Shown piece by piece: positions 40,732 through 47,356 of a stretch of DNA of 64,000 nucleotides. The DNA is from Roseobacter ponti (GTDB lineage: Bacteria; Pseudomonadota; Alphaproteobacteria; Rhodobacterales; Rhodobacteraceae), in NCBI RefSeq assembly GCF_012932215.1, contig NZ_CP048788.1:2480001-2544000 (forward strand), in the 5' to 3' direction. Both the position numbers and the translations under genes were made by a program. The notes beneath the pieces are model-generated. The model worked only from the letters and a program-made list of their open reading frames with translations. It did not search any database and had not been told where the DNA came from. Every line of letters begins with the position of its first letter. Position 1 is the first letter of the stretch.

Positions 40732-41478
40732 ATGAGCTGGACCCCCTCCGACCCTATGGTTTCTCTGAAGGACGTGCACAAATCCTTTGGTGATCTCAAA
40801 GTTCTCAACGGCGTGTCGCTGGATGTAATGAAGGGCGATGTGATCTGTATCATCGGGCCGTCGGGCTCCGGCAAATCGACGCTGATCCGCTGCGTGAATG
40901 CGCTCAATGACATTCAGCAGGGTTCAATTCTCGTCGAGGGGCAGGAGGTCAATGATCCGAAGCTGGACAAACTGGAACTGCGCAAAAAGGTCGGAATGGT
41001 TTTTCAGCAGTACAATCTGTTCCCGCATAAAACCGCTTTGCAGAATGTGATGATGGCCCCCGTGCGGGTGCTCAAACAAGACAGGGCAAGCGCGGAGGCT
41101 GCCGCACGCGCTCTGATCAAAAAAGTGCGGCTCGAAGGCAAGGAAGACGCTTTTCCCGGCGAGCTTTCAGGTGGCCAGCAACAGCGCGTGGCCATCGCGC
41201 GCTCATTGGCGATGCAACCCGATGTGATCCTGTTTGACGAAGTGACTGCCGCCCTCGATCCGGAAACGGTCGGCGAGGTTTTACAGACGATTAAGGATCT
41301 CGCCGAAGAGGGCATGACGTGTATTCTGGTGACACATGAAATGGCCTTTGCCCGGGAGGTCGCGGACCACATCTATTTCACAGACCGGGGTGTGATCGTC
41401 GAGCACGGCCCGCCAGGCACATTCTTTACAAATGCCCAAGACCCCAGAACAAAAGAGTTCCTCAGCCAGATTTTGTAG
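40732..41478 (+). CDS. Amino-acid ABC transporter ATP-binding protein (GlnQ-like)
   Basis: 248-residue ATPase of the GlnQ/HisP group. Motifs: Walker [17 protein letters not shown]-loop [20 protein letters not shown], signature [17 protein letters not shown], Walker [21 protein letters not shown] and H-loop [16 protein letters not shown]. The C-terminus [17 protein letters not shown] is characteristic of polar amino-acid importers. ATG 40732 is 9 bases after the permease stop, with GAGGAAACG upstream. Confidence 0.93.
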
Positions 41479-42487: not shown

Positions 42488-45400
42488 CTAATCGCTGCTC
42501 CCATCCGCCACAGCCACGCCTGACCGCTCGAGGTAACAGGGTTTCTCTTCTGTCATTTTCACCGCTTCAAAGGGGCGGACATCGATGTCCATCGGCTTGG
42601 TCCGGCCCTCAGCCGTCCAGACCACCAGCTTGGCGCGCGGACCGCGCGTGTCCGTCGGTGACACGTGAGGCGTCGGGCGAACGCAGCGGAACTCCGCGAT
42701 CACGCCCTTCATGTCCGGCAGCACCGTAATCCGGTCTGCGGGCTGGCCGTCGATGGTGACGACGGTGCCGCGCCACAGCCGCTCACCGGCCAGTGCTATG
42801 TGAGCCGGGCGCCCGGCCATCAGCGCATTCGACGCCCCCTCATTGTCGCGCCGCCAGGCAGAGTCGAAATAAGGCGTCTTCACCAGGTCGAAATTGAACC
42901 GCGCGGTAACCTCGTCGACGCTGCGGGGCAGTTGCACCCGGACCGGGCGCCTGAAGTGCCCTGCATTGCGCGCCTCAGTGCGTGGCGGGGTTTCGGACGC
43001 GGCGCCTGCACCGGAACCCGCCTCCGCACCAGCCTGCAACCGGGTCGTATCCTTTGCATCAGCGCCCGTAAGCGCCCTGCGCTGCGTCTCGTCATAGATC
43101 GACGCACATATGTCTGACGGGGTGGCAAACAGCGTATCGCCATGTTTGCGGGCGGCGTCAGGGCCGATCCAGCAGGCGTGAAGCTCGAGATCGAGGCGCT
43201 TCCACCAGCTCGGGACCGAGATTACGGCCGACAGGCGGTGGTGGCTCGCCGCCCAGCCGCCGCCGGGTCGAGGCTGCGGGCGCACCGTCCAGCCAAAGAC
43301 CGCCTCCGCGTCCTCCAGCCCCGCGCCGGGCGGTGCCGGGGCCTGACCAAAACCAAGCACCACCGCCTCGGCAAAGGCTGTCTGGTCGCGGCGGGACGTT
43401 TCGGCCGAGGCGCTCGCCTGCGGCGCATCAAGCCCGACCGCAAGGTCGCCGCCCCCGCCTGCCCTGCGGATCACGGTGCCCGCGCGGGGCGCGATCTCAT
43501 AAATAGAGAGGCCGTTTGTCCGCTTATCGAGCGCTTTCGTGAGGTCTCTGGCCAGCGAAGCCTCATCAATCTCGCCGTCCTCATTCCTGCGCAGATCAAC
43601 GCGGATCCGGCAGCTGGTCAATACGCAGCCGTCGGTGGTGACGTCCAGAAACTGGTTCAGCGCGGGTGGCGTCTCGCGATAGAAGCGCTTGAGATCGCCC
43701 CGGATGCGGGCCACGATAAACTCCGCCAGCAGGCCGCGCACGTTGGCCGAAGGGGCGTAAAGGAAACGGCAGCGGGCGAAGCGGATCGCCTCATCGACAA
43801 TTTCAGCACCCGCCGCAGGCTCTGTTGCACAGCGCCGCTGCAGTTCGGCAAGCTGGCTGTTGCTCCGCTGCTTAAGCGTCACCATCTCCGCTTCAAGACC
43901 GGCGATGGTAAAGGCCCGGTCGGCGTCTTCCGCTGTGCCGTCCGGCACGTCAGTTTCCGGCAACACCTCGCCAAAGCGACCAAGCAGACGGGTGATGGCC
44001 AGACGGGCCTCGCCTTCGGTCATCGGCGCATGCCTCTCTTGTCCGGCACCCTCGTCAGAGAAGGCGGGATCTGTCAGCTTGTTCTCCACCCGCGCCCCTT
44101 CCACCTCCACAGCACCGGTGTCTGCGCTCCCCGCAACCACGTGGCGGATCTCATCTGACGCACTTTTCTGAATGTCGTCAGGCGCGCTCGCAACGGCATC
44201 GCGTTGCGCCTTCATCGTCAGGCTGTGACTGCCCAGGTCATCTGTTATCGAAAGCAGCCGCATGAGCGCGCGCAACCGATAGGGATCTTCATACCGCACA
44301 AGGCATTGCTGCTCGACGAGAAGCCCGAAGGACGGCTGCCCGTCCGGCGCGGCTCCTGAGGGCGCGCCGGCCTGCGTCACCCCGGGTGCAGCCTTTGACC
44401 CGGCGCTCTTGGCGACGACGGCTAGGGCTACATCCGGGCTTCCGTCTGCTGGCTTGTCTGAAACGCTGTCCGTCGCTCGGCTCGTACCGTCATCGACAGG
44501 GACGGAACCGGTCATCGTCACGGTCGCGCCAAGCTTGTCCGCGTGAGTTACAGGGTCTGTCCCGCCATCCGGTCCGGACCGGGTCGCGGCGTCAGCGGTT
44601 TTCTCCCGCACCTGCGCGTTTCTGTCTGCGGATCCGTCCCCGCGCTGCTGCGCCATGTCCCCGTCCCGGGAGCTATCTCCGCTACCGGACGACTGATCAT
44701 CTTCCCTGTTCCTGAATGTCTTATCCCATAGGTCGGCTGCGCAGCGCTGGTCATAGCTGCCGGCGCCCGCCTTTGGCCATTGCGCGACGTTCACCAGATG
44801 CGCAAGCTCGATCGCCCGCCGGAACCCGGCCGCATGCGCAGGCGTCATATCAGGTGCGGGTTCATCGGTCCGGTACCCGAAGCCCGCAAGCTCCGCCAGC
44901 TTATCTATCCGGCATTTCCGGCGGACCTCCTCGCTTTCCGCGTCTTCCCCGGGCGTGCCGCACAGCGGCTGCAGATAGGGCTCAAGCACTTCGGAAAAAT
45001 CATTGAGATATGTGAGAAAAGTCTCGACCAGCCGGGTACGCATGAACCAGTCGAGCGCAAGGTCCTCCTTCGGATCGGTCGGGTTTTCCAGCGCACTCTG
45101 ACGTTCGAAATCCTCCAGTCGCTGGTCCAGTACCCGGGTGAGAAAGGCCTGCATTTCGCGCTGCCACTGCAACAGCAGTTCCCTGAGATCCTTGTCCAGC
45201 TGCGCCTCGTCGACTTTCGGGTCCGGCGGCTTCGCCCGGATCAGAAAAACCGCGGAGCCGGGATAGCTGCGCCGGTCGTGGAAGGGCGCCACAACCGCAT
45301 TGAAGTTCAGCCGGTAGAGCGTGTTGCCATCAAGGTCATGACCGTCGTCGAGCTGGACGTCCATCAGCTCACCCCGCAGCGCACTGCGATATGTGTTGAC

Positions 45401-46000
45401 CTTTTCAAAGAGCTCCAGCCGGTCCAGAAGCACGTCCTCGGGCGCCGGGGTGCCGGCCCGCGCTTCGCCCTCACTCTCCGCGGCTTTTGGCGCTGCAAGC
45501 CCGGCGGCTCTGAGCGTCACGGCAAGGCGCCGGATCTCATCTGATGCGGCGGAGGGTTTGGAAAAGCTGTCGATGAACCCTTCCCGGCCGGTGCGTTCCA
45601 GCTGTCCGCGCAACCAGTTGGCCTGTGTAAAGCGGTCATTAACCAGGCGCTCACGCGTATAGACCTGCGGCGCCTCCAGATAGAGGAAGCCGGGCGGTCC
45701 GGTCTCGGCTCCGGCGATCAGGGTGCTGGCCCGCTTCGCCTGCGTCGTGAGCCAGCCCCGTGCGTCGGTCGAGACAAGTGCTGCGAACCCGGCCAGGATG
45801 GCTGCGAAGACCAGCCAGGGCGACAGCGCCCAAATAAAGCCTGCAAATGCTGCCAGAGCGGCGCCCGCAGCGCTGAGAAGTTCGCCAAACCGGTTGCCGG
45901 TCCAGCGCAGGCCGCTGGCCGCCATCGCGGGTTTTGCAACTTCCGGCGGCTTGTCATCGGAACCGGGCGTTAAAGGTGCGGGTTGCTCAGGCTGCGACAT
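42488..46000 (-). CDS. Large membrane protein of unknown function, third gene of the RiPP operon
   Basis: 1170 residues; I do not recognise the family. Visible layout: a Pro-rich N-terminus; two hydrophobic segments at about 38-58 and 60-78 forming a membrane hairpin; a charged helical region; a low-complexity Ser/Asp/Gly linker at about 428-557; a second helical region; and a C-terminal beta-rich part. In that part RPAHIALAGERLWRGTVVTI and ITVLPDMKGVIAEF (about 1060-1110) resemble an IPT/TIG Ig-like domain. ATG 46000 overlaps the radical SAM stop by 14 bases and GGAAG precedes it. Coupling suggests a role in export, anchoring, proteolysis or target recognition for the modified peptide, but no catalytic motif is seen. 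Confidence 0.75.
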   Translation of the reverse strand: MSQPEQPAPLTPGSDDKPPEVAKPAMAASGLRWTGNRFGELLSAAGAALAAFAGFIWALSPWLVFAAILAGFAALVSTDARGWLTTQAKRASTLIAGAETGPPGFLYLEAPQVYTRERLVNDRFTQANWLRGQLERTGREGFIDSFSKPSAASDEIRRLAVTLRAAGLAAPKAAESEGEARAGTPAPEDVLLDRLELFEKVNTYRSALRGELMDVQLDDGHDLDGNTLYRLNFNAVVAPFHDRRSYPGSAVFLIRAKPPDPKVDEAQLDKDLRELLLQWQREMQAFLTRVLDQRLEDFERQSALENPTDPKEDLALDWFMRTRLVETFLTYLNDFSEVLEPYLQPLCGTPGEDAESEEVRRKCRIDKLAELAGFGYRTDEPAPDMTPAHAAGFRRAIELAHLVNVAQWPKAGAGSYDQRCAADLWDKTFRNREDDQSSGSGDSSRDGDMAQQRGDGSADRNAQVREKTADAATRSGPDGGTDPVTHADKLGATVTMTGSVPVDDGTSRATDSVSDKPADGSPDVALAVVAKSAGSKAAPGVTQAGAPSGAAPDGQPSFGLLVEQQCLVRYEDPYRLRALMRLLSITDDLGSHSLTMKAQRDAVASAPDDIQKSASDEIRHVVAGSADTGAVEVEGARVENKLTDPAFSDEGAGQERHAPMTEGEARLAITRLLGRFGEVLPETDVPDGTAEDADRAFTIAGLEAEMVTLKQRSNSQLAELQRRCATEPAAGAEIVDEAIRFARCRFLYAPSANVRGLLAEFIVARIRGDLKRFYRETPPALNQFLDVTTDGCVLTSCRIRVDLRRNEDGEIDEASLARDLTKALDKRTNGLSIYEIAPRAGTVIRRAGGGGDLAVGLDAPQASASAETSRRDQTAFAEAVVLGFGQAPAPPGAGLEDAEAVFGWTVRPQPRPGGGWAASHHRLSAVISVPSWWKRLDLELHACWIGPDAARKHGDTLFATPSDICASIYDETQRRALTGADAKDTTRLQAGAEAGSGAGAASETPPRTEARNAGHFRRPVRVQLPRSVDEVTARFNFDLVKTPYFDSAWRRDNEGASNALMAGRPAHIALAGERLWRGTVVTIDGQPADRITVLPDMKGVIAEFRCVRPTPHVSPTDTRGPRAKLVVWTAEGRTKPMDIDVRPFEAVKMTEEKPCYLERSGVAVADGSSD

Positions 46001-47168
46001 CGGCTTCCAGCGTCGCGAGTGCGGCCTCCAGCCCGGTCTGACGGGTCAGACGACAAAAGAGCGTCTCTGTCCCGCGCAGATGGCCATGTTCGAAGAACTT
46101 GTTCGCCGGTGCCCCGCCCCCGCAGACGTCGAACCAGGCGCATCCGGCAGCGCAGGCCGCCACCCCGGCGTCGATGTCGGCGCGCAGTCGGCGAAATGCA
46201 GGGTGGTCGAGTATCCTCTCCGGTCCGCCCTCGCAGACATTCCCGAAGCTGAAGTCGGCGTATTGCGGGGCGGCGGTTCCGATCAGCTCCGGCGAATACG
46301 TGGACATGGCCCCGTCCGCGGCCACGGTCACGATCTCCAGCGGACGGGTCTGCGGATTGGCGCGGCGCGCGCCAGAGGGCGTCAACGCCAGGGCGCGGGC
46401 GGCGTCCAGTTCTCGGCATGCGAAGGGTGCGTCTGCGGCAGCGATACGGGCAAAGAACCGGTCGAGAAAACGACGATAGACGGCCTCAGTGCCCAGGCCT
46501 TCGAGACCGGAGCGGGGATGCGCGCCCTCCTGTTCCTCGACGTTGAAGCACACGTCCCGGAAACCGTGCGCGACGTAGAAGTCGAACAGTGCGTCAGGTT
46601 GCGAGAGGCTGTCCGCCGTCAGTACCGAGATCAGGTGAAAGGGCAGCCCCGCGTCTGACAAACGTGCGGCACCCCGCATTGACAGCTCGTGGCTGCCGCG
46701 ACCGCCGCGTGTCTTTCGATACGCGTCATGAACAGCCCGGGGTCCATCAATACTGACACCGATACGAACGTCGCGTTGCCGGAACAACCTGACCCAGCTG
46801 TCGTTTATACCGATCGCATTCGTCTGGAAAGCGTGCCTGACGGTACGCCCGCCCGAAGCATGGTCAATCCGCGCGAAAGCCTCTTCGTACCAGTCAGGCG
46901 GAAGCGTCATCGGCTCGCCACCATGCCAGACGATCGACAATGGTTCTTCAGCAAGAGGGCCTGCGACGATGTTGCGGCCGATTGCGTCGAGAACGTCGCC
47001 GGACATGCGCTGACTGTCGTCGCGATGCGGCAGATAGCAATAGGCACAGTCCAGATTGCAGAAGGGCGTCGCCTGCAGCACCAGCAACCGGACAGGGCCG
47101 GCGCTTCTGTCTCTCACCAGTTGCGCCAATTGCTGAACCCGTTGCTCCAGTTGCCCCAGTTGTACCAT
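45987..47168 (-). CDS. Radical SAM/SPASM peptide-modifying enzyme, GRRM type
   Basis: Up to 393 residues. The cluster-binding motif is CNLDCAYCYLPHRD (C37, C41, C44), preceded by LLVLQATPF, the wording of the GRRM family of cyclophane-forming enzymes. A SPASM domain with further cysteines (VCEGG, ACAAGCAWFDVCGGG, FCRLT) lies at about 300-380. The enzyme should cross-link aromatic-x-Asn triplets in the adjacent peptide. Start: ATG 47168 lies inside the precursor gene. GTG 47117, which overlaps the precursor TGA as GTGA, would remove 17 residues that are only the out-of-frame reading of the peptide core, and is the better guess. It overlaps the downstream membrane protein gene. Confidence 0.9.
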   Translation of the reverse strand: MVQLGQLEQRVQQLAQLVRDRSAGPVRLLVLQATPFCNLDCAYCYLPHRDDSQRMSGDVLDAIGRNIVAGPLAEEPLSIVWHGGEPMTLPPDWYEEAFARIDHASGGRTVRHAFQTNAIGINDSWVRLFRQRDVRIGVSIDGPRAVHDAYRKTRGGRGSHELSMRGAARLSDAGLPFHLISVLTADSLSQPDALFDFYVAHGFRDVCFNVEEQEGAHPRSGLEGLGTEAVYRRFLDRFFARIAAADAPFACRELDAARALALTPSGARRANPQTRPLEIVTVAADGAMSTYSPELIGTAAPQYADFSFGNVCEGGPERILDHPAFRRLRADIDAGVAACAAGCAWFDVCGGGAPANKFFEHGHLRGTETLFCRLTRQTGLEAALATLEADVAA

Positions 47169-47356
47169 TGCGCCCGGCGGCGCGGCTTTTCGGCATCCGG
47201 CGACTTTTCACGCAACGTATCGCCCAGCCGGTCAAGCCGGGCCTCAAGCGCTCGGCGCTGTTCCTGAACTGTGGGCAAAACGTCCGTTTTCGGTGCCCCT
47301 GTGGCGGGTGCAACCGATGTCAGAAACGCAGTCAGCAGAAAGAGAAATCGTCGCAC
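47114..47356 (-). CDS. Triceptide-type RiPP precursor peptide with five aromatic-x-Asn motifs
   Basis: 80-residue peptide. Residues 1-21 are a Sec-type signal (basic start, FLFLLTAFLTS, then APATGA), 27-63 a charged helical region, and 64-80 the core WYNWGNWSNGFSNWRNW. The core is five aromatic-x-Asn triplets (WYN, WGN, WSN, FSN, WRN) plus a terminal Trp, the substrate pattern of three-residue cyclophane-forming radical SAM enzymes. The start is GTG 47356; the in-frame codons just upstream are TAA then ATT, so no earlier start exists, and GGGGG lies upstream. The gene is directly upstream of, and overlaps, the radical SAM gene. The product is predicted, not known. Confidence 0.85.
   Translation of the reverse strand: MRRFLFLLTAFLTSVAPATGAPKTDVLPTVQEQRRALEARLDRLGDTLREKSPDAEKPRRRAQWYNWGNWSNGFSNWRNW

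What the first reader, a model, noticed from the sequence alone, without database searches (positions are those of the whole stretch)
42488..47356. Candidate triceptide (cyclophane RiPP) operon with an unrecognised 1170-residue partner
Seen: an 80-residue peptide ending WYNWGNWSNGFSNWRNW, a radical SAM/SPASM enzyme with CNLDCAYCYLP, and a 1170-residue membrane protein, all overlapping on one strand. Known: GRRM-type enzymes make three-residue cyclophanes between an aromatic and the residue two positions on, often Asn. Inferred: five cross-links plus an unmodified terminal Trp, and a dedicated large membrane protein not known to me from such clusters.
Basis: partly seen in the sequence, partly recalled or inferred. 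Interest (0 to 1): 0.9.

Follow-up and report, generated by a model that had tools for sequence, protein, structure and literature searches.

The report
Cross-linked peptide operon with membrane partner
A three-gene bacterial cassette appears to make a small exported peptide stiffened by rings between aromatic and asparagine side chains, and beside the ring-forming enzyme it carries a large membrane-anchored protein of no named family that may hold or sense the finished peptide.

Summary
An 80-residue peptide (47114-47356, -), a radical SAM/SPASM enzyme (45987-47117, -; probable GTG start) and a 1170-residue protein (42488-46000, -) overlap on one strand. The enzyme is a GrrM/OscB cyclophane maturase (384.7 bits, cut-off 310). 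The peptide is GrrA-like but below that model's cut-off (15 vs 31 bits), with a Sec-like signal peptide and five aromatic-x-Asn motifs. The order precursor-GrrM-large protein recurs in 10 other loci. Of 248 family genomes 5 have GrrM over the cut-off, 6 the large family and 4 both (Fisher 4.8e-7). In the genus the same 6 of 19 match both, one of them decayed. The large protein matches no Pfam or NCBIfam family. It has an N-terminal membrane anchor, conserved cysteines and a C-terminal IPT/TIG-like fold. It is not strictly dedicated: relatives stand without GrrM in four genomes, and eight GrrM loci seen here lack it. Best reading: a Sec-exported polycyclophane peptide with an envelope-anchored partner. 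Ring formation, export and the partner's role are inferred, not shown.

The parts
47114..47356 (-). Precursor peptide, 80 aa, GTG start; GrrA-like
   Evidence: ORF; counterparts upstream of GrrM in 10 other triad loci; TIGR04260 15 bits, below cut-off 31
47294..47356 (-). Sec-type signal peptide of the precursor (residues 1-21, approximate)
   Evidence: hydropathy peak residues 4-15, basic N-terminus, AxA-like sites by a permissive pattern; same layout in 13 of 13 precursors aligned; no signal-peptide predictor was available
47117..47173 (-). Core, residues 62-80: AQWYNWGNWSNGFSNWRNW; five aromatic-x-Asn motifs
   Evidence: identical in DNA to the P. halophilus core
45987..47117 (-). GrrM/OscB-type radical SAM/SPASM cyclophane-forming maturase, 376 aa from the GTG (393 aa from the upstream ATG at 47168)
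   Evidence: TIGR04261 384.7 bits, cut-off 310; CxxxCxxC at residue 20
42488..46000 (-). Large membrane-anchored partner protein, 1170 aa, no named family
   Evidence: no NCBIfam or Pfam family up to E 1; homologues downstream of GrrM in 10 other loci
45773..45889 (-). N-terminal membrane anchor of the large protein (residues about 38-76)
   Evidence: hydropathy
45206..45709 (-). Conserved N-terminal block after the anchor (residues 98-265; YTRERLVNDR and LDDxHDxxGN motifs)
   Evidence: alignment of 12 relatives, 19 invariant columns
42530..42829 (-). C-terminal IPT/TIG-like beta-sandwich (residues about 1058-1157)
   Evidence: AlphaFold2 of the P. halophilus equivalent, 10-residue blocks of pLDDT 82-91 but for one of 69; Foldseek matches to EBF IPT/TIG domains and viral IPT/TIG proteins

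Best explanation
It is a three-gene triceptide cassette of the GrrM/OscB kind. GrrM, probably made by coupled translation just behind the precursor, joins each Trp or Phe of the core to the Asn two residues on, giving up to five small rings and a stiff C-terminal tail (inferred from family chemistry). The precursor leaves the cytoplasm by the Sec route through its own signal peptide, which would explain why no exporter or leader protease has a fixed place in the cassette (inferred). The large protein is held in the membrane by an N-terminal anchor, with its bulk outside the cytoplasm, and binds, holds or senses the modified peptide in the cell envelope through its extracytoplasmic domains, including a C-terminal IPT/TIG-like one (inferred). 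Shown: enzyme family, gene order and its conservation, co-occurrence of the genes, sequence features. Not shown: cross-links, export, topology, binding.
For: Enzyme over the curated GrrM cut-off, as are the eight other triad GrrMs scanned (two of the ten others, G254 and G257, were not scanned). OscB joins C7 of Trp to C-beta of Asn or Asp, and C4 of Phe to C-beta of Asn (passages of PMC11002830). Triad order in 11 loci with the window, while no other gene has a fixed place beside it across genera. Co-occurrence: both 4, GrrM only 1, large family only 2, neither 241, of 248 (Fisher 4.8e-7, relatedness not corrected); the same 6 of 19 in the genus. GrrM and large-protein distances correlate at r = 0.98 over 45 non-independent pairs of 10 loci. 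Signal-peptide layout in 13 of 13 precursors aligned. Six Cys columns (792, 797, 943, 965, 1106, 1155) are kept in 8 of 8 GrrM-linked rows of A1, fitting disulfides outside the cytoplasm. The G1007 relative begins with a lipoprotein-like LSGC lipobox instead of the anchor. IPT/TIG-like C-terminus.
Against: No chemistry or binding tested. The precursor is below the GrrA cut-off. Relatives of the large protein stand without GrrM in G106, G078 (83% complete), G657 and G1007, so its ancestral role need not involve a cyclophane peptide. Eight GrrM loci lack it. The two GrrM-linked copies of the G450 family were not in A1, and in later alignments they lack the Cys at column 1106. The charge before the anchor is mixed, so the positive-inside rule does not settle topology. 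The full-length model is poor (mean pLDDT 47.5) and the C-terminal one moderate (64.0), so most of the protein has no fold assignment. Foldseek E-values are weak (best 2.7e-4) and the best hit is another Ig-type protein.
Confidence: 0.5

Rival explanations
1. The large protein acts before or during export: a membrane-bound chaperone or maturation factor that presents the precursor to GrrM, hands the stiffened peptide to the Sec machinery, or processes it.
For: Gene order and co-occurrence; membrane anchor.
Against: Three precursors with the same signal-peptide layout (Phaeobacter plasmid, Afipia, Bradyrhizobium) come from GrrM loci in which it was not found (only 1.9 kb downstream held for Bradyrhizobium). 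No HExxH in any of 15 members, and GxSxG only at scattered positions in 6 of 15. The lipobox of a relative and the conserved cysteines argue for the outer side.
Confidence: 0.2
2. The peptide is a released antimicrobial and the large protein is the producer's self-protection or receptor.
For: Some rSAM-modified peptides are antibiotics (dynobactin, passages of PMC11002830; darobactin, abstract start of PMC9055067 in the listing). Patchy distribution (6 of 19 in the genus) fits an accessory trait.
Against: No exporter or protease has a fixed place beside the cassette; an ABC-ATPase family is near 4 of 11 loci at varying places, in the window as part of an amino-acid-type ABC transporter, and the window's divergent MFS gene recurs only in G255. 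The signal peptide alone reaches only the periplasm. Relatives of the large protein exist in genomes without GrrM over the cut-off.
Confidence: 0.2
3. The large gene is an unrelated neighbour that merely shares the operon.
For: Relatives occur without GrrM in four genomes, one further fragment aside.
Against: Same place behind GrrM in 11 loci, most of which do not share their flanks (G450 and G650 do), including another alphaproteobacterial family with an extra gene between; joint presence and absence.
Confidence: 0.07

Closest known systems
GrrM/OscB triceptide systems (TIGR04261 enzyme, TIGR04260 GrrA/OscA1 precursor)
   Same: Enzyme over the curated cut-off; precursor with aromatic-x-Asn repeats just upstream; sub-threshold match to the GrrA profile over its positions 6-80 of 118.
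   Different: Precursor below the GrrA cut-off; a third, large membrane-anchored protein of no named family.
GrrM plus precursor pairs without the large protein (Phaeobacter plasmid, Afipia, Bradyrhizobium, uncultured Alphaproteobacteria)
   Same: GrrM over the cut-off and a precursor with Trp-x-Asn or Trp-x-Asp repeats.
   Different: No homologue of the large protein in the fetched flanks (1.9 to 8.9 kb held downstream).
AmcB, FxsB, YhhB, XyeB cyclophane maturases
   Same: Related rSAM/SPASM enzymes.
   Different: The window enzyme is below their curated cut-offs (AmcB 300 of 425 bits).
IPT/TIG domains (EBF1, EBF3; viral and phage IPT/TIG proteins)
   Same: Predicted beta-sandwich of the last 100 residues.
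   Different: No Pfam match for the window protein, IPT/TIG included; fold-level resemblance only.

Membership tests
GrrM/OscB cyclophane maturase (TIGR04261) | score over the curated cut-off of 310 bits | tested here: met
   384.7 bits
GrrM/OscB cyclophane maturase (TIGR04261) | rSAM CxxxCxxC motif | tested here: met
   CNLDCAYC at residue 20; Pfam Radical_SAM 59.8 bits, cut-off 29.5
GrrM/OscB cyclophane maturase (TIGR04261) | SPASM-type C-terminal domain | tested here: inconclusive
   Cys at 295, 322, 326, 332 and 355, but Pfam SPASM only 13.9 bits against 21.5
GrrM/OscB cyclophane maturase (TIGR04261) | forms three-residue cyclophanes on its precursor | not testable with these tools
   needs co-expression and mass spectrometry
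GrrA/OscA1 precursor (TIGR04260) | score over the curated cut-off of 31 bits | tested here: not met
   15 bits, E 0.028; 3 of 13 aligned precursors match at E up to 1, best 4.6e-7
GrrA/OscA1 precursor (TIGR04260) | gene next to GrrM, core of aromatic-x-Asn or -Asp motifs | tested here: met
IPT/TIG domain protein (large protein) | IPT/TIG sequence profile | tested here: not met
   no Pfam match up to E 1 for the whole window protein or its C-terminal part
IPT/TIG domain protein (large protein) | IPT/TIG fold | tested here: inconclusive
   confident local model and EBF IPT/TIG hits, target TM up to 0.67, E about 1e-3, among other Ig-type hits

The most novel reading that the evidence does not exclude
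A polycyclophane peptide that is not a released antibiotic but a fixed part of the cell envelope: exported by Sec, stiffened by GrrM and paired with its own membrane-anchored Ig-like receptor or holder, spread as a three-gene unit among Alphaproteobacteria.
Probability: 0.35. Interest if true: 0.75.

Novelty: new variant of a known kind. Interest (0 to 1): 0.52.

Why it matters
What the GrrM/OscB class of cyclophane peptides does for its makers is, to my knowledge (recall), unknown. A protein that travels with the peptide and its enzyme gives a handle on a binding partner, and the signal peptides point to the periplasm as the place to look. It would turn the question of function into a binding and localisation experiment.

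Tried and rejected
The upstream ATG of the enzyme ORF (47168) as true start: disfavoured, since it arises from the Gln-Trp codons and the GTG overlaps the precursor stop; some relatives start GrrM behind the precursor (G188, G253). An overlapping-gene reading of the core: a 62-nt block around the core is DNA-identical between the window and P. halophilus, but the cores of G254 and G259 do differ, so no dual coding is claimed. Protease function of the large protein: no HExxH in 15 members. Solved-structure relatives of its N- and C-terminal conserved blocks by sequence: none up to E 1. PHROGs: only matches of E about 0.03. Full-length AlphaFold2: too poor to use. Plasmid collection: no match for the large protein.

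Literature: five searches with cyclophane, triceptide, GrrM, OscB or rSAM terms, and one with GrrA/OscA terms that returned mostly unrelated papers. No listed title or abstract start names such a partner. Passages were seen of PMC9062424, PMC11002830 and PMC10304443. The two primary triceptide papers are not held, so absence from print is not established.

A tree of 22 enzymes (19 GrrM and, as one search showed afterwards, 3 AmcB) does not join the triad enzymes into one clade (3 label changes, 7 open forks, long branches). A single origin of the triad is neither shown nor excluded.
Full report
Check of the observation. The three genes lie as described on the minus strand. The precursor (47114-47356) has a GTG start. 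The large ORF starts 14 nt inside the end of the enzyme gene. The core has five aromatic-x-Asn motifs, WYN, WGN, WSN, FSN and WRN, followed by a terminal Trp. In shuffles of the last 30 residues none of 2000 reached five.

Enzyme and precursor. The enzyme scores 384.7 bits against TIGR04261 (GrrM/OscB), cut-off 310; the other maturase models listed (best 25 of 61 families) stay below their cut-offs. Ten further enzymes scanned (eight from triads, two not) also pass. The precursor scores 15 bits against the GrrA model, cut-off 31, so it is GrrA-like by place and motif, not by curated score. From the review PMC11002830 (passages): OscB joins C7 of Trp to C-beta of Asn or Asp and C4 of Phe to C-beta of Asn. 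The same bonds are predicted here, not shown.

Conservation of the triad. Precursor, GrrM and large protein in this order occur in genomes G188, G171, G215, G254, G257, G259 and G253 and in Paracoccus halophilus (the G215 precursor was seen), and, with one more gene of 251 codons between enzyme and large protein, in G450 and G650 of another alphaproteobacterial family. With the window this makes 11 loci. An all-against-all comparison of ORFs of 70 codons or more was made for 11 loci: ten triads (G257 left out as a near-copy; 20 kb of the window) and the decayed G255 locus. Shared by three or more loci were only these three genes, their antisense ORFs, and one ABC-ATPase family (4 loci, varying places; in the window 40732-41478). 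The precursor group held 10 loci (G171 missing at that threshold), and the enzyme and large-protein groups 10 each (G255 missing). Some further genes are shared by two loci, most of them by close pairs: G450 with G650 (collinear flanks), the window with G255, G259 with G254; a few by unlike pairs such as G188 with P. halophilus.

Co-occurrence. In 248 genomes of the family, GrrM over the cut-off is in 5 and the large family in 6 (searches agree); both in 4, always adjacent. Fisher p 4.8e-7 (relatedness not corrected). In the genus, 6 of 19 genomes carry strong GrrM matches (E 4e-69 or better; 7 more have only weak rSAM matches) and the same 6 the large protein. One of them, G255, has only fragments of both and a decayed precursor beside a flank collinear with the window's. 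In the class sample 2 of 385 genomes have the large family, in the phylum sample 2 of 388 by its C-terminal part, own genome included in both. In the family of G450, 4 of 15 genomes match, of which 2 have GrrM over the cut-off. In the family, class and phylum searches with the large protein only the first two to five candidates per genome were scored, so these counts are lower bounds. Within one genus the cassette occurs in three divergent lineages, and the window's enzyme is nearest to that of Paracoccus halophilus (79% identity), which suggests transfer of the unit (inference).

Counter-examples. GrrM over the cut-off without the large protein: eight loci, namely G126 (whole genome without a match), the Phaeobacter plasmid, and six of the 13 loci. 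A profile of 15 members found nothing in them, contig ends included, but the DNA held downstream of the enzyme is only 1.9 kb in Bradyrhizobium and 6.5 to 8.9 kb in the others. Of the other seven loci one is the P. halophilus triad, three are AmcB enzymes and three remote rSAM enzymes. The large family without GrrM over the cut-off: G106 and G078 (short forms of 791 and 738 codons; G078 is 83% complete and the gene lies on a 7.7-kb contig), G657 and G1007; G654 has only a 158-codon fragment.

The large protein. No NCBIfam or Pfam family for the window protein at E up to 1, and none over its cut-off for the relatives scanned. A hydrophobic anchor lies near the N-terminus, perhaps a hairpin in the window and P. 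halophilus copies. Then come a conserved block at residues 98-265, a variable stretch about 420-730 (35% identity to P. halophilus against 70-72% in the conserved blocks) and a conserved C-terminal part. Six Cys columns are kept in 8 of 8 GrrM-linked rows of alignment A1; of the two short forms only one keeps one of them. The two GrrM-linked copies of the G450 family, added later, keep the pairs near 792/797 and 943/965 but not the Cys at 1106. The G1007 relative opens with a lipobox-like LSGC. The net charge before the anchor varies from -7 to +16 across rows, in part because some starts are uncertain, so topology rests on cysteines, lipobox and domain type. A model of 342 C-terminal residues (713-1054) of the P. 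halophilus protein had mean pLDDT 64, with blocks of 82-91 (one of 69) over its last 92 residues. Foldseek found EBF IPT/TIG domains (rank 2, and target TM 0.67 for 3mqi_C, E 1.5e-3) among many Ig-type hits, rank 1 being one of those, and IPT/TIG or IPT proteins at ranks 1, 3, 4 and 5 among viral models.

The peptide as an exported product. All 13 precursors aligned, ten from triads and three not, show a basic start, a hydrophobic stretch and AxA-like sites by a permissive pattern. With no exporter or protease at a fixed place this points to Sec export, so the likely place of action is the periplasm or envelope. This is inference; no signal-peptide predictor was available.

Judgement. A new variant of a known kind: GrrM chemistry is known, the conserved partner family is not named in the libraries searched. 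Its binding role is the most economical reading but untested.

Noticed in passing
L049:8161-8775 (also L047, L048): GrrM of uncultured Alphaproteobacteria sits beside precursors with long runs of tandem Trp-x-Asp units, possibly very long polycyclophane rods.
   Followed up: no
window 47114-47175 and L044 8994-9055: A 62-nt block covering the core is identical in DNA to P. halophilus although the leader is only 51% identical in protein. The cores of G254 and G259 do differ.
   Followed up: partly
L068 (G255): A same-genus genome carries a decayed copy of the cassette beside a flank collinear with the window's.
   Followed up: partly
L085:6613-7368, L093:8970-9725: A 251-codon gene of no Pfam family lies between GrrM and the large gene in G450 and G650, 64% identical between them.
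   Followed up: partly
L041, L042: Short relatives of the large protein lie beside a MaoC-like gene and a HAD-type gene, with a small Cys-bearing ORF convergent to them in both (gene names by eye).
   Followed up: no
L080:8001-8663: On the Phaeobacter inhibens plasmid pP92_a a 220-aa protein with a signal-like start precedes the GrrA-like peptide and GrrM; no Pfam family.
   Followed up: no
L043:7728-8120 (G126): GrrM over the cut-off with an unlike candidate precursor lacking the Trp-x-Asn run.
   Followed up: no
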